Shown: positions 1 to 63,715 of the stretch, piece by piece
How positions within the stretch are numbered: position 1 is the stretch's first letter
Layout of the letters: each line of letters starts with the position of its first letter
Assembly (NCBI RefSeq): GCF_036417845.1
Contig: NC_090011.1
Coordinates: 434,001-498,000, forward strand
Source: Apteryx mantelli
Lineage: Eukaryota; Chordata; Aves; Apterygiformes; Apterygidae
Length of the DNA stretch: 64,000 nucleotides
Direction of reading: 5' to 3'
Notes under the pieces: model-generated
What the model saw: only the letters and a program-made list of their open reading frames with translations
Told to the model about the DNA's origin: nothing
The model's database searches: none
Position numbers and translations under genes: made by a program

Positions 1-3000
1 CGACAAGAGCTCATGCTGAAGAAGGTGGGACTGTATCCTATCCTTCCCCTCACCTGGGTGGTTTCAACAGTCCTGACACCCCTGTGCCATCAAGTGCCAT
101 TATTCCTCCCAGAACTACACTGCAGTTTACAAATGTGCCACAAACCAGCTTCTCCATAAATTTAGAGAAATAGTAAAGCTGACTCTAGTATGTGAAAGTG
201 TTCAACACTTGCTGGAGCTTCTTTGTTCCTTGCTCCCAGAGTGGAGAGAGCAGACTGCCTGGGCCATTTGCAAGGATTATCCCAATTATTGCACAGCCAT
301 TGGATGATATCTAGCTGAGGGGTAGAACAGACCTGTCCTCTATTTTACTTCACCACATTTTTTCTTAGAAGATGAAGAGAAGGGAGAGAAAAAGTCCAAA
401 ATATGTGGATTGTATCTTGATCTTTCCTAGGCGCCCCATCTTGCCCCTACACACATTAGGAATGACCAGGGCACAAGGCACACCCCTGCCTCCATATTCA
501 GACAGGTTCTCACTCTGTTTCTCAACCTAAAAATGCTTATCCTTCTCTTCTTTTTCTAGCCTCATGGTGTCAGAGTAACAGGACTTGGGACATTCTACAT
601 TAAAAAATGGATGTCTTTTGAAAATGGTGAAGTGCTCAATTTTCGGAGACCTATGTTTTCATTGTCCAGGACTGTTGCACAGATTTGTGAGCTGAAAGAC
701 ACTAACATGGATGTTCCTGGTAAGAAGACCAAATCAAATCTTTTTCCTCCTTAAGTATTTGGGGTTCATGGTAATTGCTGCTTACAAGTGATGGCAGACA
801 CCTCAGATTCCTTCAGAAGGCCCTGAGAACAACCTCAGTTTGAAAAAACAAACAACCCACAAAGCAGCAATGCATAAAAAAGGACCCTTTCTTTTGGTCT
901 AGTTTTTATTAATGCTGCACAAAGTTAGACTTCCTCTCCTGGACCCACTTTAACAACTGGCTTCATGCCAGTCAAATTATACACAACACAATAGACTGTT
1001 GGGATGCCTGCTAGCTGATATAAATTTGTTGGAGCTTTTTATTGTAATGCCATTCCTTACATGGCACCAGACTGTGTAGAGGGCAAGTGGCTACATTCAT
1101 GCTGACCCTTACAGCCACCTTTATCTAGGGAGGTGGGTCAAAGTCAGCTGTAGAGAGCCTTGAACCAGAGATGGAAATGCTAGCTGGTGCAACACCTATC
1201 AGTGGCCAGATTTGCTGTGATTTCTGACCATTGCAGTGGCTGCAGAGTGACATCAATGAGGCCTGTACAGCACTAAGAGTTTGGTCTTGTGTTCAGGGTG
1301 GTTCTTCTCTTTCAAATGACTCCAACTTCTCTGTAATATGAACATCTACTGGGCATCCTTTGGGGACAGGATTCTGGTACCAAAAGCAGAGACATTTGCT
1401 CCACAAGTTTGAGGGTCAATGCGAGTGTCCAGACTCTAATGGGCTGTTGTGCAGTCATTATACTTTGCTTCTTTATCATCTCTGTGTGATGTGGTACAGC
1501 TAAGTCTCCTGAAACCAGGAATGCATGGAGTGTGGACACAGTTACATGGCCTAGCACCCTCCATATTTGTCAGGGAAACTGGCTGCATTCTCCTGACCTT
1601 GTACCGCCATCCTGCACAGTATTCACACTAGATGGCTGAGATTCTTTCTTCCTGTTTCTATGCTGAAGAAATCATTGCTGTGCACTTGGCGCATCAGCTA
1701 GTAGAGTACTTTGAATTTTCTTGGAGAGAAACCTACATCAGCCATTTTAAGGAGCAATACTGTGGGGTTAGACAAAACAGCTCTATACAAACTATTGTGC
1801 TGGAAGTTGCTGGTGCTTTATAGGAGTCTGCTAAAGAGTTATGTTGTTCCTCCTGTTTTTCCAGCTGAAATGAAAAAAGTGGTAGTAAGCTGTGAGAAGA
1901 TATGCTCAGACATCCCTTATTCTCAGGAAATAGTGCAGAGCTGTATGAAGGAGACCTTGCGCTTTTTCTATCACATCATAATGAATAGACAAGACACCGA
2001 CTTTATTTTAAAGGACATTGGCATTCTTGTTATCCAAGAGAAAAAAGTGACAGTGACATTCTGCAAAGATTTTCTACTAAGTCTGAATAAGTCTAGATAT
2101 GTGGTACAACAGTTGCTCAGTGTAAGTTTGTAATTTTTCCAGTGCTACTTAGAATTGGTTTAAAATCCCATCAAAGGACTACGAAACTGAGCCCTCGTGG
2201 CCTGCTATGACCCGCCAAGCCGCTTGGACTAGACACAATCCGCAGCAATGCAAACTCTGTAGGGGTATACAGTAATCCTTTTGCTGTGCAAGGGATAGCC
2301 CTGGAAGGACCTTGCCATAGACAGGAAGAAGGCCAAAGCAGTGGCAGGAGTGGGGACGTGTCACTGGCTTGGTGTCAGTCTAGTTCTCCTCCTGACCTGA
2401 AAGAAAAGAAAGGGCCGCTTGCTGGGTTCCTCCACACTGCAGATGAAGCCACTTGGCTCTTATGAAAGACTTTGGGGAGAAAACCACCTCGGAAGCATTT
2501 GCTTGCAGTTCTGGAGCAGCCAAAGCAAGCAATCTGACTGAAATCACCAGCCAGAAAGCCAGGCTCATAATGCGCCTACCCTTGAGTTTGCCTCCGTTGA
2601 CACTTTCATGAGTAAACAACAGTCTCCTCTCTGAATCTGTTAATTCTTGTCCTTTGAGAAAGGCTGGCAATGTCATTAGCCATTAGAATTTATATGCTGT
2701 GCAGCTTGTTACAACAAGGAGCTAAAACAAGAGCTAAAGCAAGAGCACTTGGTGAGAAGGTTGCTGAGAGGCAGCTAAATTTTGAGCAGTAGAAAAGCCT
2801 CTGTAAGCACTGAGCTCATTTCCCTGGAGTCGTCTCGGATGTGTCTGTCATTGTTGCAGTGCACATGGATGAAGAATTTAATTATATCAAGGAAAGAAGA
2901 AGCTCTTTTTCTCTGATCTATTCTCGCTGTGTCCACTTGTTTCCACAGTAAGCATATTTGCTTCTGCAGCCCTTGTGTGACCAAGCGAGGATTTGCACAG

Positions 3001-6000
3001 GTCATGTTTAGCAGTGCTGTCTGCTTTTGAAAACTGTGGACTTTCACATAACTTTAAAATATTGTAACGACCCCAATACTAATGTAGGCCACAAAGAGGA
3101 TGTTGCCTTTCTGCAGACTAGTGCCTTCTTCTTTTTTCAGGCTCCAGGCTGTGACAGCACATGAAAAAACAGCTGACAAATATCCCCCAGAAGAATTTGC
3201 GAAGCCCAAAGAAGAAAAGAAGCCACAACTACAGACTGAAAGTAACCAGAAAGGAAATGAAAGTGCTGATTCCTGATAGAGGTTTGAACGCTTTCCTTTT
3301 TTTCGTTACTGGTGGGTGCTGAGAGCCCAGGTTACCATGGGATGTGTGGGATAGTAGAATGCACCTTCCATGACTCTATCTGCCCATCACCAAAAGTCTC
3401 AAGGGACTCACTTTGGAACAAGATCCCAGGAGAGCCCGGCACCACAAACTGCGGTTGATAGTGCTGAGGTAGGTTTTGCCCCTGCACTCTTTTCCCTGGA
3501 GTTTAACTCTTTCATTTCAGCAGTCTGTTTGTGCAGAAGGGAGTCAAAATTTGGGGAAGTCCATGAGCACTGGGAATAACAAACTCTGCCGGGAGTTGTG
3601 GTAGATGGGGGTGTTGACACGTCTCTTGGAATCAGTGTGTTGTAATTTGGTGAGAAAGATCACGTAGAGGACAAGTGTACAAAGGATGCCAAGCTGTGCC
3701 AAGACTTCGTTTCTCTTTTGAAGCTGGGAAGTCCAGCTCTTCTTCCTTAATCCCTCGTGAACATCATAGAAATGATGGGTTTGGGTTGAATATGCCATGA
3801 GAGCAAATTTAGGTACAAAGACATAGATACAGCTCCAAGAATTTCTTCCCCCAAAAGACTTGTCGGGCAGCAACATCTAACTCCACCCCCAAAAGCTGCT
3901 GTTCAGAGGACGGACTAGCTGAACCAGGAGAAAACTCACACCAGAGGAAATAATGCAGCACTGTGGACGGTAAGGGTTGCACAGGACCTGGTGTCAGGAA
4001 GGGCTGAAGATCTCCCAGAAAACAGGTGTCCCAGGGAATCACAACGATGCCTCAAACAGCTTGTATCATGGCAGAGCAGATCTGCACCTCCTGTTCTGAG
4101 AGGTGTTCTCATGTCATCCTTGCAGGGCATCTTCTTCACAAGTTCTGCATTTTGCGGGAGAGCCTTTCTCCTCAGAGACTAGCCAGGGCTGGGACGAAGG
4201 AAGAAGCAGAGGAGAAAACCAAGGGAAAAGAGCCTCCCACCAGGTGAGACACTTAGCGGAACAGACTAGTATGGCTCCAAGCTCTGGTGCTTGTGTAAGA
4301 TGTTTATAGGATCGTAGAATAACTTAGGTTGGAAGGGTCCTCAGGAGGTCTCTAGTCCAAGCTGCTAACTGGTAACTAAATGCTGGTCATTATCCCAGAA
4401 GCTGAGAGTCCTGCTCTCATTTCCTTTAGATTTCAGGGAGCCTGGTCTGTGTTTGGCGAGAGCAGTGTTCAGGGTCTGTGAACACTCTGTGAGAGAGAGG
4501 AAGGGTTCAGATGCTCTCTAGGAGCTTCCAGAGAGTGCAAGGGCATGCCGGAGCTGTGTTCAAGCCCCAGGCTTGTTCCTGGAGGAGCTGCCTGAGAGCT
4601 GGTTAACCACATAGGAGCTCTTTGCTTCACTGGGGAGGATGCTGCTTTATGGGGAAAGTGAAATGCGGATCACCCTGTCCCGAGGAGGCCGAGCAGCTGT
4701 TTGTTCACATTTTATTTAGTTCCCTGGGAGCCTCTTCTTTTATACTACAGCCTGTGATTGTGGCCAGCACAGAAGAAGGGCCTGAGGTAGCTAGAGTGGC
4801 GGGATTGTTCTTCTCACTAGACCGCTTTCTGTGCTTGACACTGCTCCCCACTAACAATCCATTTTCCATCGCCAAATACACAGCACTTGGGACTGCTTCA
4901 CAGTAGTCAATGTATCAGCCAGGAGGGAGATAGTGGTGTCTCCAGGCGCTTGTCCGTGCACCTGACACAGTTCCTGCTGGGTGTCCTGAGCTCTCAATAT
5001 TGTGTCCTGGTGCCACATCTGAGTGCTAGAGCGTGGTGTTATCCCTGTCTCTGTTGATGGGAAGACAAGCAGGTGAAGAGACCTCATTCTCCTGCGGAAG
5101 CACCTGCTGCTGCAAAAGCAAGCACACCCCTTTTGAGCACAGGCTGGAGAAGAAGCTCCTCCTGCACTCATACCAGCTCATCCTGGTGTGTATTTTTAGA
5201 GAGCTCCCACGATGTCCAGGCATAGAAGGAAGGGAACACAAAGAAACGCCTTTTGGGAGGCTCCAAATGCCATTCCCTGTTTCTGAAGATCATAGAAGGG
5301 CAGGACAGGTACCGGATATAAATTGAATTATTGTGTCATTTTTAATTGTAGAAAATCACATAGAGATATTGTATGAAAAATATGTACCTGAAGAATGTAT
5401 GGATATTGATTCTGAAAAGATCCCTTATTCTTTACTCATTTTGATATTAAATTGTCTGTTTCAGCTATTTAAAAAATGTAAGTTTCTTTGTATCTTCACA
5501 ATCACTTGTTCAGATCAATATTTTCATGAAACACACAAAAACTTTTTTTGTACATTATCTCAGAAAGGTACCTTTAGTTTTTTTATGAAGGATAGCCGTT
5601 TTCTCCTTAGCTCATTGATGAGTTAGTTCATTGGCCATAACAGAAGGGCTTTCTGTTTGCATCCATAAGAACTTAGGAACAAAACAGCGCTGACAGAAAC
5701 CCTCCAGACAAGGGGGAGAAGAGAGGGTGAGGAACATTATTAAAAGAAAATAATAATAAAGCAAGTGAGACTAACTGCTGCTATTGCATTTCTGTGGTCC
5801 TATAGGAAACATACCCCATGTTTAGGATGAGAGACCTACAGAAACTTCAGGCATCCATGACTAATGAGAAGGAGAAAGAAGAGAAGAGAAAAAGAGGAAG
5901 GGTTAAATTGCCAGAACTGGCAGAACAGCGAGCTAGGAGAGAAAGGGATGAGATGTGGAGGGCCCAGGTACTGAGGCACTTTAAAACATCCGGAACAGTA

Positions 6001-7500
6001 GCATTGTTCTCACTGCGGGGAGCCGAGTTGTGATGGTTTCCAGGCCACAGCAGTATTGCTACCTACAGAAAGTGGGGCAGGTAGCTGTTGTTTTCATTCT
6101 TGACGGCTCATTGCTATGGGGGAGAAATTGCCAGGGGAAACTGAGGGACAAAGGCAGCAGCCTACCACAGTGAGGGCATAAATGCGCGGTCCGTTCCTTG
6201 AAATGAGGCCTCCTTTGCCTATGCAGCTGCAGTGGAGCTTGAGCAGGAGCTCTCCTGGTCAAATGGCTTGAGCCAGCTCCACCCAACAGCCTGGAGGGGG
6301 AGGGCTCCTGGAGCAGCTTTTCTTTACTGTCTCTATATTAGCATGATCAGTAAGAGCAGTGTTCATAGGAAAACATATTTTGGCAAATCCAGCTTCTTAA
6401 CTGAAGTATTTGGACCTACTCCCAAGCACACTGGCATGAAGAATTCTTTCCATTGGCTTCAGTGGTCAGGAGATGAAGTGTTTCATGTTCCCTTTGTTGG
6501 AAAGGAAGAGTTTAGGGCTGAGCGTCCTGAGCATGGCAGTACAATCACTAGATATCTTCAAGGCTGTTGAGGGCTATTCCCACTGTTCACACTGCAAGCC
6601 AATACGCACTACAGTTCTTTTCCTTGCATAATAGGTGAAACCTTTGGTAAAAAATTTGTATCAACAAAAAGATTTTGCCTTTAATATGGGGACTGCTGAG
6701 ATGAAGAGAAAGGCTATTGAAGAGAGGAGAGAACGTTTGGTAAGACTGTGTTTTAAAAAGAAAAAGTAATTTCCACCCTGGGAACTTCTTTGTCAAAGCT
6801 CTGGCTGACGTTTCTTTCCAGAAGGGTCTAGACCAGACCAAGGAACCGCAGGAACAGTTTCTCAGTTCTGGCCAAGAGAAGACACAGTGTTATTCATTTG
6901 CCATTGCTAGGCTGTCCACTGTGGGGGAAGCAGCAAGTGGGACAGGGAGCACAGATGCCCAGAGCAAAACCTGAGCTCAGAATGGGTCAGGAGGATCATT
7001 TGGTCTGACCTGCTGAACCTCTACAGCAGGATTCATTTAATAGATCCTGCTCAGCAAATGACAATCACCTGCCCTCACTGATGCAGCTTCACTGATGATT
7101 ATTCTACCTCATTCTGAGGTAGAGGTTTCCCACTTAGTGAAACCCTGGTCAGACTTTGCCCTCACCCTGAGGGCATACTGAGGTGATACTTCTGGTTCTC
7201 TTTCCCCCATTAAGTGTCCCTGCCAGACGTACTCTGTGGTTTCTGTGTTAGGGAAACAGCCCCATATATTTGCAGCGTTGTTTGAGACGGGTCTCTCTTT
7301 TTTTGCAGAAATCTTATCTGTTACATATTAAGACTCACAGTCCTACATCAGTATATCTCCAGCGAATGAGGTACAGCAAAGAACTGAGGGAGAAAATGAA
7401 GGAGGGGCTGGAAAAGACCCCAGAGGATAATAGCTCTGGAGTGGAGGAATCTTTAGAAGATGAAGGGAAAGTTCATGACCTGGCAGTGCTTATACAAATC
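1..7500 (+). CDS. CCDC81-like HU-domain gene, copy A (5' end outside window)
   Basis: Spliced gene of the CCDC81 family: two HU (bacterial DNA-binding fold) domains, then coiled coil. Exons read: 1-24 (end of the first HU half, RQELMLKK, donor GTGGGA), 560-719 (HU1 arm, motif GVRVTGLGTF), 1865-2121 (HU2), 3141-3164 or longer, 4126-4243 (uncertain), 5806-5967 (charged coiled coil), 6635-6739 (FAFNMGTAEMKRK, matching the NAAYNLGVAEAIRN block of human CCDC81), and 7309-7500 (KSYLL...SPTSVYLQRMRYSKEL, matching the following human KSFLF...SPALNALKQEEYSRSL block). Read in phase, the 3141 exon stops at TGA 3162-3164 after a few residues, giving an HU-HU-only protein. If the 3141 and 4126 exons are skipped, all remaining junctions are phase 0 and the frame stays open to 7500. 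Family assignment is strong. Which isoform is real, and whether the gene is functional, is not settled. Confidence 0.7.
3141..3276 (+). other. Exon with shared premature stop (A), mirrored at 18270-18135 (B)
   Basis: Follows a good acceptor (cttttttcag). In phase with HU2 it reads APGCDST then TGA; APGCDST aligns with RPDTVDS just after HU2 in human CCDC81, so this is the expected frame. A second frame is open for about 45 codons (polar, Lys/Glu-rich, ending at TGA 3274-3276), but no phase 1 donor supplies it. Both arms are the same here, so the stop is shared. Confidence 0.5.
4126..4243 (+). other. Possible polar linker exon of copy A (mirror 17285-17168)
   Basis: Acceptor tcatccttgcag and donor CAG|GTGAGA bracket 118 bases. 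The frame that ends in phase 0, as the next exon needs, is open and polar (Ser/Glu/Gly-rich). An overlapping frame holds a CTSC motif recalling the Cys-x-x-Cys of CCDC81 (MCYVC), but it ends out of phase with the coil exon. Exon status is uncertain. Confidence 0.35.
4309..4380 (-). mobile_element. CR1 LINE 3'-end fragment in arm A (mirror 17031-17102)
   Basis: Starts with ggatcgtagaataacttagg and continues through ggttggaagggtcctcagg, the degenerate 3' terminus of avian CR1 elements in reverse orientation. The same fragment sits at the mirror position in arm B, so it predates the duplication or was copied by conversion. Confidence 0.75.
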
Positions 7501-10212
7501 GTAAGCATGCATAGCTTCCACTGAGGCCTTGAAATGTTTAGAGGCAGTGACCTCATTGCAAGGTTAAGGATCCTAATCCCTGAGCCACGAGGCTGCATAC
7601 AGCATGCTCCAGTTTCTCACAACATGGGAATTAACTGGGTTAGACACTGATTCCAGTCACCTCTTGGCAACCCAAAGCACATGGCTAAAACTCATCCCGA
7701 GCTGAAGGGGCTGTGGGTAGAAATGGGACCATGTGTGCAGGGGCTGGGGGAAGTCAGAGGCAGGAAGGTCTCAGCCAGAGTGTGGGAGAGTGCTGTTGTA
7801 ACTGTATGCCACAATGAGTATTCCAACTGTGGAGGAGGAGGAGAGTCCAAAGCTTGGCTGTCAAAACTGCAAAAGAGAACTGACAAGAAATTAATTGAGG
7901 AGAATCAGATTGTCCTGCAAACACGGCTGGGGCTTCCCCCTATCCTGCAGTGTCCACAGCCAGCAGTGCCTAGGGAAAGAGGGTCTTTTCCTGACACCAT
8001 TTGTGCAATAGCAGCAGGCTTTTATGCCTGACTTTGAGTCAGACATCCCCTTCATTCAAGGGGGAGTTGTTGGGAATAAGGTCTAGGAATGAGATCTAAC
8101 TATGGGATGTAAAAGTATTATGTGGATGAAGACCAAAGGAATCATCAGATGTTTGGCTCTCGATTTTCTAGCCAAAGAGTTTGTTGTTCCTCTCGAGGAA
8201 TATCTTAGTTAAGAGATTTTTGTCCTGAGGTATTTTTCAATACTTGTTTGTTCAGTCATCTCAGCCCCTGCCATACTTAGCCCCAGGCTGATTAATTGCC
8301 TAGATTACCTTGTTTGGACACAAGAGGTCCACAGAGCACCACAAATGCCACTAAATTCAGGAGCAGCTCCAATAACATATGGACTGAAATAGGCCTGCAA
8401 TATTTCTTTGCCTTTCTGCATGTATGTAAAACTTACTGCGTTTCTTTCTAATCTTTTAGCGCTGCGGAGAAAATCCACCTCTGTGACTGGAGTGAAATGC
8501 ACTCAAGGTTGCATGCTCTGCACTTGCACTGAAAATTTCATTATCGGCAACATCACACCTTCTCTGCAGATCAAAGAGAATTCACTGTCCAATTAATGTT
8601 TCAACACTCTTACTCACAATACAAACATTCTTATTAGTCCAATTACTGGAATTTTGGTGTTACAGCTCAAATCAAGCTGATGTCAGTTCAAACTCAGATA
8701 AGGCTGGGCAAGTCCTCAACCTGGTTTTGTTGATCATGGCTATAAAGCTGAGGCCTTCTGCTGTCATTCTGGATCACAGCACAGAAAAACCTTCCACTTC
8801 ATGTGTTCTGCCTTGCAAAGGAATTCATTCTTTGAATTTCTGCAGGCAGTCATACACCTCAAGATCTGTTTATCACCATTCAGCAACAATTAAGTTTTTC
8901 AGGCTTCCAAATTGGTGTGATACATTCCTTCATGTGGTGTTAAATGTGCAAATAACAATGTGTGAGCTTTGGAAGACTAGGGAAAGGACAGCTCAGAAGA
9001 CGGTTTGAGTTTCAGTCCCAATTCCAGGACGGCTTTCTCTCATGTGATGAGGGGTCTCTCCAGGGTGTGTGTATGAATGTCCTTGATGTGCTAGAGTGCT
9101 GGGCCTTTGGCTCTGTGAAGGAAAGAATGTGGATCCCAAGCGCCAGAGGTAGGATCTGGACACCAAGCTGCTTCCCTCCATCAGTGCTGGGCACTCAGAG
9201 GAGCTGAGCTGTAGGTCAGTGCATCACCTCTTGCAGGGGAGAAGCAGAGTATATCAGCTGGGACTTTGCAACTCCTGACCACTCCTGTACCCAGGCCAGC
9301 CTTGCTGGTGTATCCAGAGGTGTGCAGGCATCACCTTGTGCATAGGGAAAAACCAAATCAAACAATGCAACCTCCTCAGGTGATAGGGGAAGGAGAGTTT
9401 CGGGGGGACACTTTTGGGCTTAGGTACCATCATTCTGCCAAAGCTGTGCTCCTGACTTTTGTCACATACCTCCTGGTCAGAAATGACAGGGTGTCTTTGG
9501 GGGATGGCTGCCACTTTTTAGTACAGTCCTGAGTCTTCTCACTGAAGACTACTCATACCAGGACTGCAACTGCTCTGGCGTGAGCTCAAAGAAAAGTCAC
9601 CTGCTTCTCTGACCTGCTTGTTCTCCTCCATCCTTTGACCCAAACAAGTTTACGTGTGTCTCTGAAAAAAGTATCTCTTTCTGTGTGAAATCCATCCCAT
9701 GGGATGGCAACAGGGCCTCTGTTGATCCATAAATTCTCCAACCCTGCCCTTAATGCCCTGAGACATTCAACTTCTGTCACGTGTGACACTATATGATACT
9801 GCACTTCAGGTCATGCCCCATAGTGTCCTAGTGAGACAGACTTACAGGCCAGTGGGGAGAGCTGGATGTCCACACATGCTCCTGCCTGATCTGGAGTCAC
9901 TCACACACTGGCAGCTTTTACTCCACATGGGTTTTGAAGTGCCTCTGCAGCCAGGAAATCTTTCCCCATGCTTATTGTGCATGGGGTCTGTGGAGCCAAT
10001 CAGAGATTGTAGCTTGGATTCAAAATGTGCAAGACTAAAATCTTTCTGGCTGGAATAACAGGATCAGGGCTATGAATGGCAGGGCTCCTTCTGGTGCAGC
10101 CCTCATGTGGGAATAGATCTTACTGACTTTGGATGCTTGTTTCCCAATCCTTCAGACTAGCCCGAGCTCATCCTTCTCCTAGGAGAGTGGCAGGAGGGAA
10201 TTTCTTATCTTG
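7501..10212. other. Spacer, left part: no recognisable gene
   Basis: Short frames only. A charged stretch around 7840-7920 (reading AWLSKLQKRTDKKLIEE) looks coiled-coil-like and could be a decayed CCDC81-type exon, but has no convincing splice sites. The remainder to 10212 gives nothing I recognise. Confidence 0.4.
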
Positions 10213-12060
10213 GAATCACAGAATTGCTGAGGTTGGAAGGGATCTCTGGAGATCAGCTAGTCCAACCCCCCCTGATCAAAGCAGGGGCACATAGAACAGG
10301 TTGCTCAGTACCATGCCCAGTCAGGTTTTGATTATCTCCAAGGATGGAGACTCCACAACCTTTCTGGGCAACCTGTTCCAGTGCTCAGTCACCCTCATAG
10401 TCAAAAAGTTTTTTCTTACATTGAAGTGGAGTTTCCTGTATTTCAGATAGTGACCAATCCATCTTGTCCTGTCAGTGGATATCACTGAGAAGAGTCTGGC
10501 TCCCCCTTCTTTGCTTCTCCCCATCAGGTATTTATACACATTGGTAAGATCCCCCTTGAGCCTTCTCTTCTCCAGGCTAAACAATCCTAGCTCTTTCAGC
10601 CTCTCCTCATATGAGAGATGCTCCAGCCCCTTAACCATCTTTGTGGCCTTTTGCTGGACTTGCTTCAGTAGATCCATGTCTCCCTTGTACTGGGGAGCCC
10701 AGACCTGGACACAGCAGTCCCGATGTGGCCTGACAAGTGCTGAGTAGAGGGGAAGGGTCATCTCACCTGCCAGTGATGCTCCCCCTTATGCAGCCCAGGA
10801 TGCTGTTGGCCATCTGCCACAAGGGCACATTTGTGGCTCACATTCAGCTTGTCCATCAGGACCCTCAGGTCCTTCTCTGCAAAGCTGTTTTTTCAACCAG
10901 TCACCCCCAGTGGGTACTGGTGCATGGGGTTATTCCTCCCCAGGTGCAGGATTTTGCACTTCCCTTGATCAAACTTCATGAAGTTCCTTTCTGCCCATTT
11001 CTCCAGCCTGACAAGGTCCTTCTGAATGGCAGAGCAATCCTCTGGTGTATCAGCCACTGTTCCCAATTTTGTATCATCTGCAAACTCACTGAGGGAGCAC
11101 TCTGTCCTATCGTCCAGGTCATTAATAAAGATGTTAAACAGTATTACACAGAATCACAGAATGGTTGAGGTTGGAAGGGACCTCTGGAGATCATCTAGTC
11201 TAACCCCCCTGCTCAAGCAGGGTGACAGTGTAGTCCCCTGAAGTACGCCATTAGTGACTGGCCTACAGCTGGACTTCATGCTGCTAATCCCAGCCCCCTC
11301 TGAGCCCTGCAGCTCAGCCAGTTTTCCATTCACCTCGCTGTCCGTTTATCCAGTCTGTACTGCATCAGTCTGCCACTGAGGATGTTACCAGAGACGGTGT
11401 AAAAAGCCTTACTAAAGTCAAGGTAGACAACATCCACTGTTCTCCTCTCATGCACTGAGCTAGTGATCTTGTCATAGAAGGCTATCAGGTTGGTTGAACA
11501 CGATTTCCTCTTCCTATATCCCTGCTGACTACTCTCGATCACCTTCTTGTCCTTAGTATGTTTGAAAATAGCTTCCATGTGGATTTACTCCCTCACCATC
11601 CCATGAATCAAGGTGAGGCTGACAGGCCTGTTGTTCCCTGGATCCTCTTGCTTGCCTTTCTTAAAGACAGGAGTGACATTTGCTTTCTTCCAGTCCTCAG
11701 GAACCTCCCCTGATTGCCATGACCTTTCAAAGATAATCGAGTGGCCTCACAGTGACATCAGTCAGCTCCCTCAGCACTTGTGGGTGCATCCCATTAGATC
11801 CCATAGGCTTGTGCATGTCCAAGTTTTTGAATGTTCCCTGACCTGATCCTCCTTTACCAAGGGTAAGTCTTCCTTGCTCTGGACTTTCCCGCTGGTCTCA
11901 GGCACCTGGGATTCCTGAAGGCTGGTCTTACCAGTAAAGACTGAAGCAAAAAAGGCATACAGTACCTCAGCCTTTTCCATGTCCCCTGTCATCAGGTGCC
12001 CTATCCCATTCAGCAGTGGGCTCACATTTCCCTGTGTCTTTTGCTGCTGATATACCTATT
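10213..12060 (-). mobile_element. CR1 LINE, 5'-truncated, decayed
   Basis: The minus strand encodes pieces of the CR1 ORF2 reverse transcriptase: YLDFSKAFYTVS at about 11430-11380 and the carboxy-terminal block [19 protein letters not shown] at about 10755-10700. It ends at 10213 with the typical CR1 3' tail (tggaatcacagaattgctga). The upstream part (11771-12025) matches the pre-RT region (YAFFASVFTGKTS). Frameshifts split the ORF into at least three pieces, so the element is dead. The 5' limit is approximate. Confidence 0.88.
11147..11232 (-). mobile_element. Second CR1 3'-end nested inside the first
   Basis: The host CR1 reads ...gatgttaaacagtatt, is interrupted by cagaatcacagaatggttga through ctgctcaagcagggtgacag, then resumes at tcccctgaagtacgcc, where an intact CR1 would be continuous. 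A short, 5'-truncated second CR1 therefore inserted into the older element in the same orientation. Confidence 0.75.
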
Positions 12061-13767
12061 CTTGCTGCTGAGAAACCACCTTTGAAGGCAGTGTGTCTCT
12101 GTTGCCACTGTCTCTACAGGTTCATATTCCGCTGTCTCCAAATCTCCCATCTCCTGTGATGCCATATGTCTGATCTTCATTTGTCTGTATCCCATGTGCT
12201 CATATTCCCCTGTCCTTGTATCCCCCTTCCTCATGCCTCCGGCTTTTTGATTCTTTCAGTTTCTTTCAGGAGACAGAAGAACCCCAGGGGAGCACCAGTG
12301 ATACTGGAGTCCTGCCCCCTTGAGTGACTGTTAGTATGTCAGGATGTCTGGGTGTTCCCTCGCCAACATTAGGGAAGGCACCAGGTTCCTCCCAGATGTG
12401 GAGTGAGCTAGATGCAGGTACGATTGGAGTAACCATGGGCTTATAGTTTATTGTGCTGCTCAAGCCTTGGTGATCAGGTGCAGGGCTACTTGACTGGGAC
12501 CACCAGACAGCCCCAGGCAGAGAATCTGCTTTCCCTATATTCCATTTTTCCCCATTTTCCCTTCCCAAATCTTTATCCTTTACCACCCTCTTCCCCCCTG
12601 CCATAGTAAACAGCCCATCCCGGTTAGCCCATTCCTCACTGGTCCTGACTTTGGTAACTTCATGCCCTTATTTATTATTTGTGATATGGCTGCCCTGCTG
12701 ATTTCCACCCGGGTCAGCAGTGGTAGTAAGTCAGCCTCACCAAACCTGTTCTTTGCCATTGTGCAGAACAAGCTGTGCATTCATTCTCTTGTCCAAGCTG
12801 CCTTTAGAGGACCTTGAGCTATGTGCTGCAGCATGAGATCTATCCCTGGAATCCTCTGAGCCCAGGGACTTCAGGGCAGTGAAGCCTGACTCCCTCCCGC
12901 ATACTCCATGGCATCTTTGCCTTTTCCAGCCCAGCTGCAGCTCAGCTGGGCAGTCTTCAGCTGTGGTCTGCAGCTGCTGAGCAGCACAGACAAAAAACAT
13001 CTGCACCTAATAAAGGTCCCACTGCAGGTTTCTTCATGTGTCCAAGAGGTATGGAGAGGGTTAACTTTTTAACTTTCAGTCCTTCAGCTCACATTAGAGC
13101 AGGTTAGTGGTGTCCCTTCCCATGTCTGCAAGAAACATTAAAAACTAAAAAAAGCCCTAAGAACTGTAGGTATTGAGGCAACACAAAAACAAACCTGACA
13201 GTAATGGCAGTTTACAGGGTCCAGATGGAGCAGAGATCTAGGAAGAACAAAGACTGGCAAGTCATGAATAAAAGGTATGCTCTCCTGGCCTGTGAACTCA
13301 CCAAGCTTTGTCTGAAGGTTGCAGGATGAGGTTTTCAAAGCCCCAGAGCCTCAGCAGGGGTGCATGAGAGCCTTGCTGAGCTCAGGCCTGAAGGGCAGGG
13401 CTGAGCTCTGGAGCACACTGGTAGTGCGCTGAGCTCTTGTTGTATTAGCACATTTCTCACATTCATCAACAACTGCACTCCTGTGCCTGGCTTCTCTCCA
13501 CTAATACTACGTTTTAAAACCTCAGTCTTTCAAGTCTTTTCCATTCCCATTCAACACTTAGAAAAGCCCTCAACTAACAGAGAATTCACCTGCAAAGATT
13601 TCCATTCAAAACAAGGCCAGGGCATGAGTGCCAACACTCCCATGCCTGAGCTCTCTGGAAAACAGTAGCAGCAATCCAGATAGAGATATTATTTTATTAT
13701 GACCCTGCAAATAAGTGTGGGGTAGCATATGGGGTTTTATCAGCTCTTCTTTTCATTGTTCCTGCAG
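12061..13767. other. Spacer, middle part: nothing recognised
   Basis: Low-scoring short frames on both strands. Repeated wording around 12020-12240 (cctgctgatat, tttctttcagg) may be a further degenerate CR1 5' portion. No coding signal found. Confidence 0.35.
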
Positions 13768-13838
13768 AGAAATACATTGAAAGGCATAGGATGGTCATGC
13801 CAGCTGTGAAACCAGGAATGGGTCTTCATTTTGCATTT
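13768..13838 (+). other. Orphan exon-like element in the palindrome spacer
   Basis: A strong acceptor (tttcattgttcctgcag) and a good donor (TTT|GTAAGC) flank 71 bases, open in the frame that completes a split codon (KYIERHRMVMPAVKPGMGLH...). It starts as a phase 1 and ends as a phase 0 exon. It does not fit directly after the 7309-7500 exon of copy A, which ends in phase 0. I do not recognise the peptide. Confidence 0.35.
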
Positions 13839-14039
13839 GTAAGCGGATTTTAGTATTAGAAAGACACCCCCTGGCCTGTTGCTATCAACTCACTGCTGTA
13901 AAGGAAGCAAAGACCTCCATTTGGACCTGGAGTTGTGGCCAGGCTTTATCTCCGGTTTGTCTTTATCTCTGGGTTGTCTGGCTCTTTCTTTTTGTAGCCT
14001 CATCCCAGCTCTCTCTGATTTTCTCTCCTGAATTTGAGA

Positions 14040-17000
14040 CTATGCCGGTGTCCTAATGTAGTCTGCAAGACTGGGAATCTTATTCTTAGTGATGTAGGAT
14101 TTCTGCAAAGAAAAAGATGCCCTTCTCAAACAACGCTGCAAATATATGGGGCTGTTTCCCTAACACAGAAACCACAGAGTACGTCTGGCAGGGACACTTA
14201 ATGGGGGAAAGAGAACCAGAAGTATCACCTCAATATGCCCTCAGGGTGAGGGCAAAGTCTGACCAGGGTTTCACTAAGTGGGAAACCTCTACCTCAGAAT
14301 GAGGTAGAATAATCATCAGTGAAGCTGCATCAGTGAGGGCAGGTGATTGTCATTTGCTGAGCAGGATCTATTAAATGAATCCTGCTGTAGAGGTTCAGCA
14401 GGTCAGACCAAATGATCCTCCTGACCCATTCTGAGCTCAGGTTTTGCTCTGGGCATCTGTGCTCCCTGTCCCACTTGCTGCTTCCCCCACAGTGGACAGC
14501 CTAGCAATGGCAAATGAATAACACTGTGTCTTCTCTTGGCCAGAACTGAGAAACTGTTCCTGCGGTTCCTTGGTCTGGTCTAGACCCTTCTGGAAAGAAA
14601 CGTCAGCCAGAGCTTTGACAAAGAAGTTCCCAGGGTGGAAATTACTTTTTCTTTTTAAAACACAGTCTTACCAAACGTTCTCTCCTCTCTTCAATAGCCT
14701 TTCTCTTCATCTCAGCAGTCCCCATATTAAAGGCAAAATCTTTTTGTTGATACAAATTTTTTACCAAAGGTTTCACCTATTATGCAAGGAAAAGAACTGT
14801 AGTGCGTATTGGCTTGCAGTGTGAACAGTGGGAATAGCCCTCAACAGCCTTGAAGATATCTAGTGATTGTACTGCCATGCTCAGGACGCTCAGCCCTAAA
14901 CTCTTCCTTTCCAACAAAGGGAACATGAAACACTTCATCTCCTGACCACTGAAGCCAATGGAAAGAATTCTTCATGCCAGTGTGCTTGGGAGTAGGTCCA
15001 AATACTTCAGTTAAGAAGCTGGATTTGCCAAAATATGTTTTCCTATGAACACTGCTCTTACTGATCATGCTAATATAGAGACAGTAAAGAAAAGCTGCTC
15101 CAGGAGCCCTCCCCCTCCAGGCTGTTGGGTGGAGCTGGCTCAAGCCATTTGACCAGGAGAGCTCCTGCTCAAGCTCCACTGCAGCTGCATAGGCAAAGGA
15201 GGCCTCATTTCAAGGAACGGACCGCGCATTTATGCCCTCACTGTGGTAGGCTGCTGCCTTTGTCCCTCAGTTTCCCCTGGCAATTTCTCCCCCATAGCAA
15301 TGAGCCGTCAAGAATGAAAACAACAGCTACCTGCCCCACTTTCTGTAGGTAGCAATACTGCTGTGGCCTGGAAACCATCACAACTCGGCTCCCCGCAGTG
15401 AGAACAATGCTACTGTTCCGGATGTTTTAAAGTGCCTCAGTACCTGGGCCCTCCACATCTCATCCCTTTCTCTCCTAGCTCGCTGTTCTGCCAGTTCTGG
15501 CAATTTAACCCTTCCTCTTTTTCTCTTCTCTTCTTTCTCCTTCTCATTAGTCATGGATGCCTGAAGTTTCTGTAGGTCTCTCATCCTAAACATGGGGTAT
15601 GTTTCCTATAGGACCACAGAAATGCAATAGCAGCAGTTAGTCTCACTTGCTTTATTATTATTTTCTTTTAATAATGTTCCTCACCCTCTCTTCTCCCCCT
15701 TGTCTGGAGGGTTTCTGTCAGCGCTGTTTTGTTCCTAAGTTCTTATGGATGCAAACAGAAAGCCCTTCTGTTATGGCCAATGAACTAACTCATCAATGAG
15801 CTAAGGAGAAAACGGCTATCCTTCATAAAAAAACTAAAGGTACCTTTCTGAGATAATGTACAAAAAAAGTTTTTGTGTGTTTCATGAAAATATTGATCTG
15901 AACAAGTGATTGTGAAGATACAAAGAAACTTACATTTTTTAAATAGCTGAAACAGACAATTTAATATCAAAATGAGTAAAGAATAAGGGATCTTTTCAGA
16001 ATCAATATCCATACATTCTTCAGGTACATATTTTTCATACAATATCTCTATGTGATTTTCTACAATTAAAAATGACACAATAATTCAATTTATATCCGGT
16101 ACCTGTCCTGCCCTTCTATGATCTTCAGAAACAGGGAATGGCATTTGGAGCCTCCCAAAAGGCGTTTCTTTGTGTTCCCTTCCTTCTATGCCTGGACATC
16201 GTGGGAGCTCTCTAAAAATACACACCAGGATGAGCTGGTATGAGTGCAGAAGGAGCTTCTTCTCCAGCCTGTGCTCAAAAGGGGTGTGCTTGCTTTTGCA
16301 GCAGCAGGTGCTTCCGCAGGAGAATGAGGTCTCTTCACCTGCTTGTCTTCCCATCAACAGAGACAGGGATAACACCACGCTCTAGCACTCAGATGTGGCA
16401 CCAGGACACAATATTGAGAGCTCAGGACACCCAGCAGGAACTGTGTCAGGTGCACGGACAAGCGCCTGGAGACACCACTATCTCCCTCCTGGCTGATACA
16501 TTGACTACTGTGAAGCAGTCCCAAGTGCTGTGTATTTGGCGATGGAAAATGGATTGTTAGTGGGGAGCAGTGTCAAGCACAGAAAGCGGTCTAGTGAGAA
16601 GAACAATCCCGCCACTCTAGCTACCTCAGGCCCTTCTTCTGTGCTGGCCACAATCACAGGCTGTAGTATAAAAGAAGAGGCTCCCAGGGAACTAAATAAA
16701 ATGTGAACAAACAGCTGCTCGGCCTCCTCGGGACAGGGTGATCCGCATTTCACTTTCCCCATAAAGCAGCATCCTCCCCAGTGAAGCAAAGAGCTCCTAT
16801 GTGGTTAACCAGCTCTCAGGCAGCTCCTCCAGGAACAAGCCTGGGGCTTGAACACAGCTCCGGCATGCCCTTGCACTCTCTGGAAGCTCCTAGAGAGCAT
16901 CTGAACCCTTCCTCTCTCTCACAGAGTGTTCACAGACCCTGAACACTGCTCTCGCCAAACACAGACCAGGCTCCCTGAAATCTAAAGGAAATGAGAGCAG

Positions 17001-20000
17001 GACTCTCAGCTTCTGGGATAATGACCAGCATTTAGTTACCAGTTAGCAGCTTGGACTAGAGACCTCCTGAGGACCCTTCCAACCTAAGTTATTCTACGAT
17101 CCTATAAACATCTTACACAAGCACCAGAGCTTGGAGCCATACTAGTCTGTTCCGCTAAGTGTCTCACCTGGTGGGAGGCTCTTTTCCCTTGGTTTTCTCC
17201 TCTGCTTCTTCCTTCGTCCCAGCCCTGGCTAGTCTCTGAGGAGAAAGGCTCTCCCGCAAAATGCAGAACTTGTGAAGAAGATGCCCTGCAAGGATGACAT
17301 GAGAACACCTCTCAGAACAGGAGGTGCAGATCTGCTCTGCCATGATACAAGCTGTTTGAGGCATCGTTGTGATTCCCTGGGACACCTGTTTTCTGGGAGA
17401 TCTTCAGCCCTTCCTGACACCAGGTCCTGTGCAACCCTTACCGTCCACAGTGCTGCATTATTTCCTCTGGTGTGAGTTTTCTCCTGGTTCAGCTAGTCCG
17501 TCCTCTGAACAGCAGCTTTTGGGGGTGGAGTTAGATGTTGCTGCCCGACAAGTCTTTTGGGGGAAGAAATTCTTGGAGCTGTATCTATGTCTTTGTACCT
17601 AAATTTGCTCTCATGGCATATTCAACCCAAACCCATCATTTCTATGATGTTCACGAGGGATTAAGGAAGAAGAGCTGGACTTCCCAGCTTCAAAAGAGAA
17701 ACGAAGTCTTGGCACAGCTTGGCATCCTTTGTACACTTGTCCTCTACGTGATCTTTCTCACCAAATTACAACACACTGATTCCAAGAGACGTGTCAACAC
17801 CCCCATCTACCACAACTCCCGGCAGAGTTTGTTATTCCCAGTGCTCATGGACTTCCCCAAATTTTGACTCCCTTCTGCACAAACAGACTGCTGAAATGAA
17901 AGAGTTAAACTCCAGGGAAAAGAGTGCAGGGGCAAAACCTACCTCAGCACTATCAACCGCAGTTTGTGGTGCCGGGCTCTCCTGGGATCTTGTTCCAAAG
18001 TGAGTCCCTTGAGACTTTTGGTGATGGGCAGATAGAGTCATGGAAGGTGCATTCTACTATCCCACACATCCCATGGTAACCTGGGCTCTCAGCACCCACC
18101 AGTAACGAAAAAAAGGAAAGCGTTCAAACCTCTATCAGGAATCAGCACTTTCATTTCCTTTCTGGTTACTTTCAGTCTGTAGTTGTGGCTTCTTTTCTTC
18201 TTTGGGCTTCGCAAATTCTTCTGGGGGATATTTGTCAGCTGTTTTTTCATGTGCTGTCACAGCCTGGAGCCTGAAAAAAGAAGAAGGCACTAGTCTGCAG
18301 AAAGGCAACATCCTCTTTGTGGCCTACATTAGTATTGGGGTCGTTACAATATTTTAAAGTTATGTGAAAGTCCACAGTTTTCAAAAGCAGACAGCACTGC
18401 TAAACATGACCTGTGCAAATCCTCGCTTGGTCACACAAGGGCTGCAGAAGCAAATATGCTTACTGTGGAAACAAGTGGACACAGCGAGAATAGATCAGAG
18501 AAAAAGAGCTTCTTCTTTCCTTGATATAATTAAATTCTTCATCCATGTGCACTGCAACAATGACAGACACATCCGAGACGACTCCAGGGAAATGAGCTCA
18601 GTGCTTACAGAGGCTTTTCTACTGCTCAAAATTTAGCTGCCTCTCAGCAACCTTCTCACCAAGTGCTCTTGCTTTAGCTCTTGTTTTAGCTCCTTGTTGT
18701 AACAAGCTGCACAGCATATAAATTCTAATGGCTAATGACATTGCCAGCCTTTCTCAAAGGACAAGAATTAACAGATTCAGAGAGGAGACTGTTGTTTACT
18801 CATGAAAGTGTCAACGGAGGCAAACTCAAGGGTAGGCGCATTATGAGCCTGGCTTTCTGGCTGGTGATTTCAGTCAGATTGCTTGCTTTGGCTGCTCCAG
18901 AACTGCAAGCAAATGCTTCCGAGGTGGTTTTCTCCCCAAAGTCTTTCATAAGAGCCAAGTGGCTTCATCTGCAGTGTGGAGGAACCCAGCAAGCGGCCCT
19001 TTCTTTTCTTTCAGGTCAGGAGGAGAACTAGACTGACACCAAGCCAGTGACACGTCCCCACTCCTGCCACTGCTTTGGCCTTCTTCCTGTCTATGGCAAG
19101 GTCCTTCCAGGGCTATCCCTTGCACAGCAAAAGGATTACTGTATACCCCTACAGAGTTTGCATTGCTGCGGATTGTGTGTAGTCCAAGCGGCTTGGCGGG
19201 TCATAGCAGGCCACGAGGGCTCAGTTCCGTATTCCTTTGATGGGATTTCAGAACAGCTCTCAAGTAGCCCTGGAAAAATAATATGCTTACAGTAAGAAGA
19301 GCATCTACTAGCTTTCCAGACTTATTAAGAGATTCAAGAAATGTTTTGTAAAATTTCATTGTCACTTCTTTCCCTCGTATGTCAAGAATGCTGACGTACT
19401 TAAAAATAAAGATGGCATCAAGTCTGCTCTCTAGGGTGCTGGAGAAAACCTTCAGGGTCTCCTGTATGCACATTTGTACCAACTTCCGAGGAATGTTCAT
19501 GTCCATGGATATTTGAGCATAGTTTAATGGAGCAATTTGTGTAATACCTAGAAAACAACATTTATGGAACAAAGTAATTCACACAACAGTTGAGCAGACT
19601 CTAATAAAGGGCCAGCAGCTTCCAGGCAATGTTCTGTATAGAGCTGTGTTGCCTAACCCCTCAGTACAGCTCCTTAAAGGAACTGGTTTCTCCTCAAGTT
19701 CAAAGCACTCTATTAACTGATGTGCCAAGTGCACAGCAATGATTTCTTCAAATAGAGATAGGAAGAAAGACTATCAGCAATCTGGTATGGTTACAGTGAT
19801 GGCAGTAATGGCCAGAAATTACAGTAAATCTGTCCATCAATTTATTTTTGTACCTGCTATCATTTCCATCTCTGGTTCAAGACTCTCTGTAGCTGACTTT
19901 GACCCACTTCTCTAGATAAAGGCAGCTATAAGGGCCAGCATGAATGCAGGTATTTTCCTTTACACAGTCTGGTGCTATGTAAGTAAATGGCATTAGCTTC

Positions 20001-21482
20001 ATCTAAATGTCATTGCAATAAAAAGCTCTAGTAAATTGGCATCAGCCAGCACTGAATAAATGAGACCAGCATGAAACCAGTTGTAAAGCAGGTCACCAAG
20101 AGAGACTAACTTTGGGCAGCATTAATAAAAACTAGTCCAAATGAAAAGGTCCCTTTGGGGTTGTTTGTCTGTCAAACTGAGGTTGTTTTATTGCATGTAC
20201 ATGCAAGGCGAAATAAAGATTTTAATTGGTCTTCTTACCAGGAACTTTCACTTTTGCATATTTGAGCCCATGGACACATGCAACATTCTTGCACAGCTTG
20301 AAAACAGCTCTGTGAACAATCACAGACTCATCTTTTCCAGTGTATAGTTTTCCTTTAAAAGGAAAGAAAGTCCCCAATCCACTTATTCTAACACCCTGAA
20401 AATAGAAAAAGATAGAAGGATTATTAATAAGCATTTCTTAGCTGGAAAACCTGAGCGAGGTTTTGTCAGAACACGGGGATGGTACTTTGTGCCCTGCCCA
20501 CTTTATGGGGCACTTAGGAATGCTCAGAAGACCCACATATTCTGGACATTTTATCTTCCTTTCCTTTACTCTCTAAGAAAATATTTGGTGAAGTAAAACA
20601 GCAGATGAATCTATCCCACCCCTCAGCTAGATAACATCCAAAGTGTGTGGAACAAGTGGAATAAACCCAGGAAATGTCTTGGACTGTCTGTTGGCTTGCT
20701 CCACTCTGGGAGTGAGTAACAGAGAAGCCCCAGCAAGTGCTGAATACTTTTGCATGCTGGAGCTGGAGTTTACTATTTCTCTAAATTTATAGAGAAGCTG
20801 GTCTGTGGCACATTTGTAAATCACTGTGGACTTCTGGGATGATTTTCTTCTGTTTTAAAAGAAAGGGAAGGATAAGTGCACTTGATGACAAAGGGGTATC
20901 AGGATTACTGAAGCCATACTGGGGCAAAGAGAGGGAGAGGATGCCATCTCACCTTGTTCAGTGCCAGCTGCTGTCTAATGTACTGAAAAACTGCATCCCA
21001 AATATAAGTGATCTCTAGAAAGTGAGGGGAAGAGATGTCAAGCTCAACTTCAGCAGGCTTCCAACCATTTTGCTATACAGTCATCCACTACACTCCCACT
21101 GGAGCTGCTCCAGCTCTTGCACTCAGCTGGGAGCTCAGGTTGGGCAACCCCACTGTAAGGAAAGCATTAACCCACCTGCCAGGGACTTCTGGGTGCCCCA
21201 AGAAGGCAGAGATAGGAGCAGGACCCAGGAGCCCTGGCTGCCAGATTTACACTGTAGCTTTTGAGACAGTCAGCCTGGGCTCTCATTGCAACCACCAGCC
21301 CTGTCCAGCCATCCCCCAAGGACCCCCGGGTTTCCATGGCTATTTCTGTCATCAACATTCTCTGCAACAACACTCATGAAATAGCTCCTGAAGGCCTTAC
21401 CGAAGGAAATGAGATTTTTGAGACCTGGATACATGTCTTTGTCATGCCTCTTGAGGTCAGTGTGCTGGACTTCCGTCTTCAT
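14040..21482 (-). CDS. CCDC81-like HU-domain gene, copy B (complete 5' end)
   Basis: Inverted paralogue of copy A. Exons on the minus strand: 21482-21401 (ATG; MKTEVQHTDLKRHDKDM...), 21014-20953 (ITYIWDAVFQYIRQQLALNK, first HU helices), 20395-20239 (GVRISGLGTF, HU1 arm), 19547-19291 (HU2), then 18271-18247, where the same in-frame TGA as copy A ends the protein. These five join in clean phase (82+62+157+257+24 nt), predicting a 193-residue protein made of two HU domains only. The order agrees with human CCDC81, whose HU1 contains a comparable IWDHVS...GVQIPGLGTF stretch. Downstream coil exons lie at 15605-15444 and 14776-14672. The last exon (14102-14040) diverges from copy A and reaches TAG after 20 codons, with a one-base shift restoring partial similarity. 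The 5' part looks functional; the 3' part is decaying or untranslated. Confidence 0.72.
14124..19226 (-). repeat. Near-identical inverted repeat, arm B
   Basis: Mirror of 2185-7287. Its edges fall inside introns: one between the HU2 exon and the exon with the shared stop, the other about 20 bp before the final exon. The homogenised tract therefore carries the middle of the gene while the HU exons and the last exon stay diverged between copies. Confidence 0.93.
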
Positions 21483-62440: not shown

Positions 62441-63715
62441 GGATCATAGAATGGTTGAGGTTGGGAGGGACCTCTGGAGATCATCTAGTCCAACCCCCCT
62501 GCTCAAGCAGGGTCACCTGCAGCACGTTGCATGGGATCGCATCCAGGTGGCTTTTGAATATCTCCAAGGAAGGAGACTCCACAACCTTTCTGGGCAACCT
62601 GTGTCAGCTCAGTCACCCTCACAATAAAAAAATCTTTTCCTTAGATTCAGGTAAAACTTTCTGTATTTCAGTTTGTGCCCATTGCCTCTTGTCCTATCGC
62701 TGGGCACCACTGAAAAAAGTCTGGCCCCATTCTCTCTACACCCTCTCTTCAGATACTTAAACACATTGATAAGATCCCCCCTCAGTCTTCTCCAGGCTGA
62801 ACAGTCCCAGCTCTCTCAGCCTTTCCTCACAGGAGAGATGCTCCAGTCCCCTAATCATCTTTGTAGCCCTCCACTGGACTCGCTCCAGTAGCTCCATGTC
62901 TCTCTTGTATTGGGGAGCCCAGAACTGGACACAGTACTCCAGATGTGGCCTCACCAGGGCTGAGTAGAGGGGGAGGATCACCTCCCTCCACCTGCTGGCA
63001 ACACTCTTCCTCATGCACCCCAGGATACCATTGGCCTTCTTGGCCACAAGGGCACATTGCTGCGTCATGCTTAACTTGGTGTCCACCAGCACTCCCAGGT
63101 CCTTCTCCGCAGAGCTGCTTTGCAGCAGGTCAACCCCCAACCTGTACTGGTGCATGGGGTTATTCCTCCCCAGGTGCAGGACCCTGCACTTGCCTTTGTT
63201 GAACTTCAGGAGGTTCCTCCCTGCCCATCTCTCCAGCCTGTCCAAGTCTCTCTGAATGGCAGCACAGCCCTCTGGGGTATCAGCCACTTCTCCCAGTTTT
63301 GTATCATCGGCAAACTTGCTGAGGGTGCACTGTCCCTTCATCCAGGTCACTGATGAAGAAGTTGAACAAGACTGGACCCAGTATTGACCCCTGGGGGACA
63401 CCGCTATTTACTGGCCTCCAGCTAGACTTTGGGCCACTGATGACAACCCTTGGAGCTCTGCCATTCAGCCAGTTCTCAATCCACCTCACCGTCCACTCAT
63501 CTAACCCACACTTCCTGAGCTTCCCTATGTGGATGTAATGGGAGACAGTGTTGAAAGCCTTGCTGAAGTCAAGGGAGACAACATCCACTGCTCTTGCCTC
63601 ATCTACCCAGCCAGTCATTCCATCATAGGAGGTTATCAGATTGGTTAAGCATGATTTCCCCGTAGTGAATCCATGCTGACTACTCCTGATCACCTTCTTA
63701 TCCTTCACACACAGT
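62441..63715 (-). mobile_element. CR1 LINE, 5'-truncated
   Basis: 3' end at 62441 (ggatcatagaatggttgagg). The minus strand encodes reverse-transcriptase blocks [42 protein letters not shown] (the catalytic FADD box) and [19 protein letters not shown]. The ORF is broken by a frameshift between 63300 and 63400. Better preserved than the element at 10.2-12 kb. Confidence 0.92.

What the first reader, a model, noticed from the sequence alone, without database searches (positions are those of the whole stretch)
2185..19226. Inverted pair of CCDC81-type HU genes with a sharply bounded, homogenised 5.1-kb core
The two arms pair by x -> 21411-x over 5.1 kb with no indel and only two substitutions noticed. 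Beyond each edge (2184/19227 and 7288/14123) the arms are still alignable but differ in many positions, including the HU exons (GVRVTGLGTFYIKKW versus GVRISGLGTFFPFKG). A recent duplication would be uniform; a young core inside an old duplication points to arm-to-arm gene conversion, as in sex-chromosome palindromes.
Basis: partly seen in the sequence, partly recalled or inferred. Interest (0 to 1): 0.85.

Follow-up and report, generated by a model that had tools for sequence, protein, structure and literature searches.

The report
Two diverged genes sharing identical intron
Two old, strongly diverged neighbouring genes that face each other carry one large intron that is almost letter-for-letter identical, best explained by recent copying of that intron from one gene to the other while the protein-coding parts stayed different.

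Summary
The core is the body of ONE intron (intron 3, 98% of it) of two convergent CCDC81-type HU genes. It begins 63/64 bp after the HU2-exon donor and ends 21 bp before the exon-4 acceptor. The exons beside it differ at 34-40% of aligned sites, introns 1 and 2 at 21-26%. In the own genome (1.504 Gb) only two full copies were found; other family loci match parts of it at about 65-75%. In the HU2 exon tree A and B do not group; in intron 2 they are sisters (100/100, path 0.30); in the core the path is 0.0005. A-B synonymous divergence is 2.7 times intron-2 divergence, the highest of 55 pairs. Recent intron-to-intron gene conversion fits best, as in primate L/M opsins. The sex-chromosome-palindrome analogy is weaker: no GC bias was found, and one recent event is not excluded. 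An assembly error could not be tested.

The parts
2185..7287 (+). Core, arm A: body of intron 3 of gene A
   Evidence: 5,100 of 5,103 positions pair with arm B, no gap; exon limits
14124..19226 (-). Core, arm B: body of intron 3 of gene B
2122..2184 (+). 5' edge of intron 3, gene A; pairs with 19227-19290 of gene B
   Evidence: 12 of 63 aligned sites differ
7288..7308 (+). 3' edge of intron 3, gene A, with acceptor; pairs with 14103-14123 of gene B
   Evidence: 5 of 21 sites differ
560..719 (+). Gene A, second HU1 exon
   Evidence: HU-CCDC81_euk_1 at 20.1 bits, E 0.0007, below the cut-off of 26.1; splice sites
1865..2121 (+). Gene A, HU2 exon (first codon split with the exon before)
   Evidence: HU-CCDC81_euk_2 at 62.2 bits, cut-off 26.1; donor GTAAGT
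7309..7500 (+). Gene A, exon 4, 64 open codons, donor GTAAGC
   Evidence: only its first about 60 bp resemble gene B
20953..21015 (-). Gene B, first HU1 exon (3' part; the start is approximate)
   Evidence: donor GTGAGA; joined B peptide has HU-CCDC81_euk_1 at 40.9 bits
20239..20395 (-). Gene B, second HU1 exon
19291..19547 (-). Gene B, HU2 exon (first codon split)
   Evidence: HU-CCDC81_euk_2 at 69.7 bits; donor GTAAGC
14040..14102 (-). Gene B, exon 4: 20 codons, then a stop
7309..14102 (.). Spacer between the two introns: 3' parts of both genes and a repeat at 10215-11226
   Evidence: no long similarity between its halves; repeat pairs with 62443-63705

Best explanation
Two convergent, anciently duplicated CCDC81-type HU genes (A on +, B on -) share intron 3 because one copy was recently written over the other by ectopic gene conversion between inverted repeats on the same chromosome. 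Shown: the core is the body of one intron, sits at the homologous place in both genes, was found only twice in the genome, and is bounded on both sides by old, diverged but homologous sequence. Inferred: the copying step itself (fold-back or sister-chromatid pairing, then long-tract repair); that it ended where homology falls off towards the exons, or that tracts running into exons were removed by selection; and that introns 1 and 2 were homogenised in earlier rounds. Direction of copying and number of rounds are not known.
For: Identity 5,100 of 5,103 with steps at both edges. Homologous splice-site strips and exons outside both edges. Two full copies in the genome, although the core is the family's ordinary intron 3: in ten other family loci its alignable pieces differ at 0.32-0.35 per ungapped site from A and B alike. 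HU2 exons of A and B are as far apart (0.385) as from ten other family members (A 0.370-0.454, B 0.354-0.470), while intron 2 makes them sisters at 100/100 with path 0.30 and the core gives path 0.0005. Synonymous sites differ more than introns 1+2 (43 of 87 against 268 of 1,159, Fisher P 3e-7), and the A-B dS/K and dN/K are the highest of 55 pairs. The same signature is read as intron conversion in L/M opsins (passages).
Against: No GC-biased signature in the core (96 W>S against 126 S>W). No like case among 153 pairs of 18 family loci. The A+B exon clade is not rejected either (AU p 0.27 and 0.51), so the exon-intron tree conflict is weak. dS near saturation and mean dS/K up to 2.3 in pairs with C34c soften the claim that the exons are older than introns 1 and 2. 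No reads and no second species were available.
Confidence: 0.68

Rival explanations
1. Assembly artefact: reads of one intron were used for both loci, so that one arm holds a false copy between true flanks.
For: Near-perfect identity with abrupt edges is what such an error would give; no reads could be examined.
Against: Three differences, one in the middle and one near each edge; no N in the window; the arms lie about 7 kb apart within one contig of 2.67 Mb.
Confidence: 0.13
2. The core is kept by recurrent, long-lasting arm-to-arm conversion, as in sex-chromosome palindromes, perhaps with crossovers that invert the spacer.
For: Inverted arms at 99.94% with diverged flanks; introns 1 and 2 look younger than the exons, which suggests earlier rounds.
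Against: GC bias absent in the core, as in intron 2 of A and B; GC 46.6% against 50.1-54.3% in three paralogues. Recurrence needs other species.
Confidence: 0.25
3. A young duplication in which only the exons (and introns 1 and 2) changed very fast by diversifying selection.
For: dN/K of A-B is the highest of 55 pairs (1.79).
Against: Introns 1 and 2 and synonymous sites are diverged too, and the change at the core edges is a step inside the intron itself.
Confidence: 0.03
4. A mobile element, or separate insertions of one 5.1-kb unit, in both genes.
For: Two near-identical copies with sharp edges.
Against: Same place in both genes, no long terminal or terminal inverted repeats, only two full copies, and the core is homologous to intron 3 of other family members.
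Confidence: 0.02

Closest known systems
Catarrhine L/M (red/green) opsin genes: conversion in introns, exons kept apart (PMC3213168 and review PMC3924837; passages seen)
   Same: Neighbouring paralogues; exons, at synonymous and non-synonymous sites alike, diverge more than introns; exon and intron trees disagree.
   Different: Here the genes are in inverted, convergent order (the opsins are tandem), the contrast is far larger (0.06% against about 39%), one intron is affected to its full length, and function and population data are lacking.
Sex-chromosome palindromes (abstract starts of PMC8981503 and PMC3403216 seen in the listing)
   Same: Inverted arms over 99% identical with a spacer and sharp edges; conversion between arms is the proposed cause.
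   Different: Arms hold one intron and no recognised gene; no GC-biased signature; sex linkage not tested.
GOT1 paralogues of the copepod Tigriopus (PMC3728101; abstract start seen in the listing)
   Same: Islands of divergence that persist beside converted stretches.
   Different: Other gene and organism; the paper itself was not read.

Membership tests
CCDC81-type HU family | HU2 domain over the Pfam cut-off (26.1 bits) in both genes | tested here: met
   62.2 and 69.7 bits
CCDC81-type HU family | HU1 domain over the Pfam cut-off | tested here: inconclusive
   B met as joined exons (40.9 bits); A only as a single exon, 20.1 bits, its first exon being cut by the window start
Intron-confined conversion of the L/M opsin kind | Exons diverge more than introns, at synonymous sites too | tested here: met
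Intron-confined conversion of the L/M opsin kind | Exon and intron trees disagree | tested here: inconclusive
   A and B group in intron 2 and core, not in the HU2 exon tree, but the clade is not rejected there
Intron-confined conversion of the L/M opsin kind | Recurrence of intron homogenisation in several species | not testable with these tools
   no relatives found
Sex-chromosome palindrome with arm-to-arm conversion | Inverted arms over 99% identical, sharply bounded | tested here: met
Sex-chromosome palindrome with arm-to-arm conversion | GC-biased substitution in the arms | tested here: not met
   96 W>S, 126 S>W
Sex-chromosome palindrome with arm-to-arm conversion | Lies on a sex chromosome | not tested
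Sex-chromosome palindrome with arm-to-arm conversion | Genes within the arms | tested here: not met
   four ORFs of the core without Pfam match at E 1; no Rfam match in the window; the core is intron

The most novel reading that the evidence does not exclude
Intron 3 of this greatly expanded HU family works as an exchange platform: the identical inverted introns recombine, turn the spacer over and swap 3' halves between the two genes, making new HU proteins, while selection keeps the HU exons apart. This predicts both orientations of the spacer (7288-14123) in the population.
Probability: 0.1. Interest if true: 0.65.

Novelty: new member of a known kind. Interest (0 to 1): 0.42.

Why it matters
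It is an unusually clean natural case in which one intron is nearly identical while the exons beside it are as diverged as between distant family members, so it separates copying between genes from selection against copying. The family around it is large (150 of 198 candidate HU2 places were scored and listed, all over the cut-off), so the rule that limits exchange to introns could be tested. The last copying is so recent (3 differences in 5,103) that it may still be polymorphic.

Tried and rejected
Mobile element: in 2100-7350 only short repeats of 14-24 nt, none at both ends; same site in both genes; family-wide homology. Hidden gene or RNA in the core as a cause of conservation: four ORFs tested, 0 Pfam families at E up to 1; 0 Rfam matches in the window at gathering scores. 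A weak HU1-like frame at 4369-4518 (E 0.053) was taken as chance. More HU genes in the window: the HMMER search of stop-free frames of 20 or more residues found no further convincing HU exon. Generality: of 153 pairs of 18 family loci none has an intron-3 start much closer than its HU2 exon; the highest ratio was about 1.3 (15 best pairs printed; the A-B pair was not in that call). Patches of earlier conversion inside introns 1 and 2: divergence in 50-site windows is only mildly uneven (P 0.018 and 0.051). Direction of copying: at 5161 five of seven outgroup rows have C as in A and two have G, so T in B looks derived; 2232 (four T, three gaps) and 7178 (mixed) tell nothing. Relatives outside the genome: none confirmed in viral contigs or genome contigs. 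Papers: CCDC81 with birds (3 papers, none on gene-family expansion by title and abstract start), HU domain with CCDC81 (0 papers), the full protein name (10 of 23,451 listed, 0 occurrences of the name in those 10), CCDC81 with gene-family terms (10 of 830 listed, 0 occurrences of CCDC81 in those 10). I recall, without having seen it here, a published analysis of eukaryotic HU domains that reported a bird expansion. Two papers on bird dot chromosomes were listed; of PMC12954441 passages were seen.

Full report
OBSERVATION. The two arms pair by x -> 21411-x over 5,103 bases without a gap and with three differences, at 2232, 5161 and 7178. The comparison by feature gives 3 of 5,103 in the core, 12 of 63 in the strip outside the outer edge and 5 of 21 in the strip inside the inner edge. 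With the mismatches dealt out at random along 6,845 aligned sites, the longest identical run in 2,000 shuffles was 204; observed 2,928. The old duplication goes on outward past the window start in pieces of 63-66% identity, to about 1.4 kb before it. Inward it fades within about 60-80 bp.

GENE ANATOMY. Pfam finds the second CCDC81 HU domain in both outer flanks (62.2 and 69.7 bits, cut-off 26.1). Reading frames and splice sites give, for gene A (+), an HU1 exon 560-719, an HU2 exon ending at 2121 and exon 4 at 7309-7500. Gene B (-) has HU1 exons at about 20953-21015 and 20239-20395, an HU2 exon ending at 19291, and exon 4 from 14102. The HU2 exons are given in the parts list as 1865-2121 and 19291-19547 because their first codon is split; one search used limits two bases off. 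In B exon 4 reads 20 codons and meets a stop. The core fills 5,103 of the 5,187 bases of intron 3 in A. The genes face each other with their 3' ends inward. No transcript was seen; the models are inferred from the sequence.

AGE CONTRASTS. A against B: second HU1 exon 62 of 154 aligned sites differ, HU2 exon 100 of 255, intron 1 131 of 505, intron 2 137 of 654, exon 4 start 18 of 53, core 3 of 5,103. Over the two HU exons (136 codons) dS is 0.80, dN 0.51, dN/dS 0.64 (bootstrap 0.40-1.05). Synonymous sites differ more than sites of introns 1 and 2 (43 of 87 against 268 of 1,159, Fisher P 3e-7). Among 55 pairs of 11 family members (HU2 exon, K from intron 2) the A-B pair has the highest dS/K (2.73) and the highest dN/K (1.79; next 1.11). 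The 21 close pairs (K up to 0.18) lie at 0-1.49 for dS/K, but the ten pairs with C34c reach 1.85-2.31. The pairs are not independent, and dS is near saturation in the distant ones.

THE FAMILY. The window lies at C34:434001-498000 of a genome of 1,504,198,195 bases in 408 contigs. A search with the core gave two full copies; the other 40 matches are partial, at 65-75% (42 matches, 40 of 558 candidates scored, so a lower bound). The HU2 model matches at least 150 places (150 of 198 candidates scored), many in groups of equal score. A third HU2 exon lies on the same contig about 26 kb before that of gene A (C34:409867-410088). In ten other family loci compared, pieces of the core align with 0.32-0.35 mismatches per ungapped site, to A and B alike. 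So the core is the family's ordinary intron 3, and the A-B identity is the anomaly. Trees: HU2 exon (12 rows), A and B do not group, though their union is not rejected (AU p 0.27 on DNA, 0.51 on protein). Intron 2 (11 rows), A and B sisters at 100/100, path 0.30. Core (9 rows), sisters at 100/100, path 0.0005.

MECHANISM. Same position in both genes, homologous flanks on both sides, two copies and no element ends mean that sequence was replaced in place: gene conversion, or an equivalent copying repair, between inverted repeats. This step is inferred. The exons beside the core kept their old differences. Two readings remain: tracts stop where homology falls, or tracts that entered exons were lost by selection. 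The excess of synonymous over intron divergence suggests that introns 1 and 2 were also homogenised after the exons had parted, in earlier rounds. The gibbon opsin study draws that conclusion from the same signature (PMC3213168, passages; theory in PMC3924837, passages).

AGAINST. The GC bias expected of frequent conversion is absent. On the A/B branch of the core there are 96 W>S and 126 S>W changes where three outgroups agree; three paralogues show the reverse (101/74, 110/94, 176/88). GC at 2,696 shared columns is 46.6% against 50.1-54.3%. Intron 2 of A and B, outside the core, leans the same way (A 81/100, B 46/69), so the core is not special in this respect. A single recent event fits the core as well as continuous exchange. 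The pattern was not found in 153 other pairs of 18 loci, many of them near-identical copies. Without reads an assembly fault cannot be excluded.

IDENTITY OF THE HOST. That the genome is a bird's is my inference from its size, the GC-rich tandem-repeat landscape, CR1-like repeats (recalled; no Pfam match) and the HU expansion (recalled as a bird feature). Further along the window are a protein kinase domain, an SRCR domain and a C2H2 zinc-finger frame. I recall a similar gene order (SBK, SSC5D, zinc-finger genes) in human 19q13.42; this was not tested.

VERDICT. Observation confirmed, interpretation partly supported. A clean new member of a known kind: conversion confined to an intron between diverged paralogues.

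Noticed in passing
own genome, contigs C20, C23, C16, C32, C27, C271 and others: Very large HU-CCDC81 family: 150 of 198 candidate HU2 places scored, all listed ones over the cut-off, dozens on C20 alone; on C16 13 places with equal score lie mostly 9,459 bp apart, a tandem array.
   Followed up: partly
L053 (C34:404001-414000): A third HU gene about 26 kb upstream of gene A on the same contig, diverged from both A and B by about 0.34 per aligned site in intron 3.
   Followed up: yes
window 11200-14040: Gene B beyond its short exon 4 has no detectable similarity to the 3' part of gene A or of the third gene, while A and the third gene match there: the 3' end of B was replaced, lost or rearranged.
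   Followed up: partly
window 10215-11554 and 62443-63705: Two copies of a reverse-transcriptase-like repeat (CR1-like by recall), 72-78% alike; 80 bp of it recur at 11147-11226.
   Followed up: no
window 30000-64000: GC-rich stretch (mostly 60-73% in 2-kb windows) packed with minisatellites, with kinase, SRCR and zinc-finger frames.
   Followed up: no
window 2185-7287: Core is poorer in GC than intron 3 of three paralogues at shared columns (46.6% against 50.1-54.3%).
   Followed up: partly
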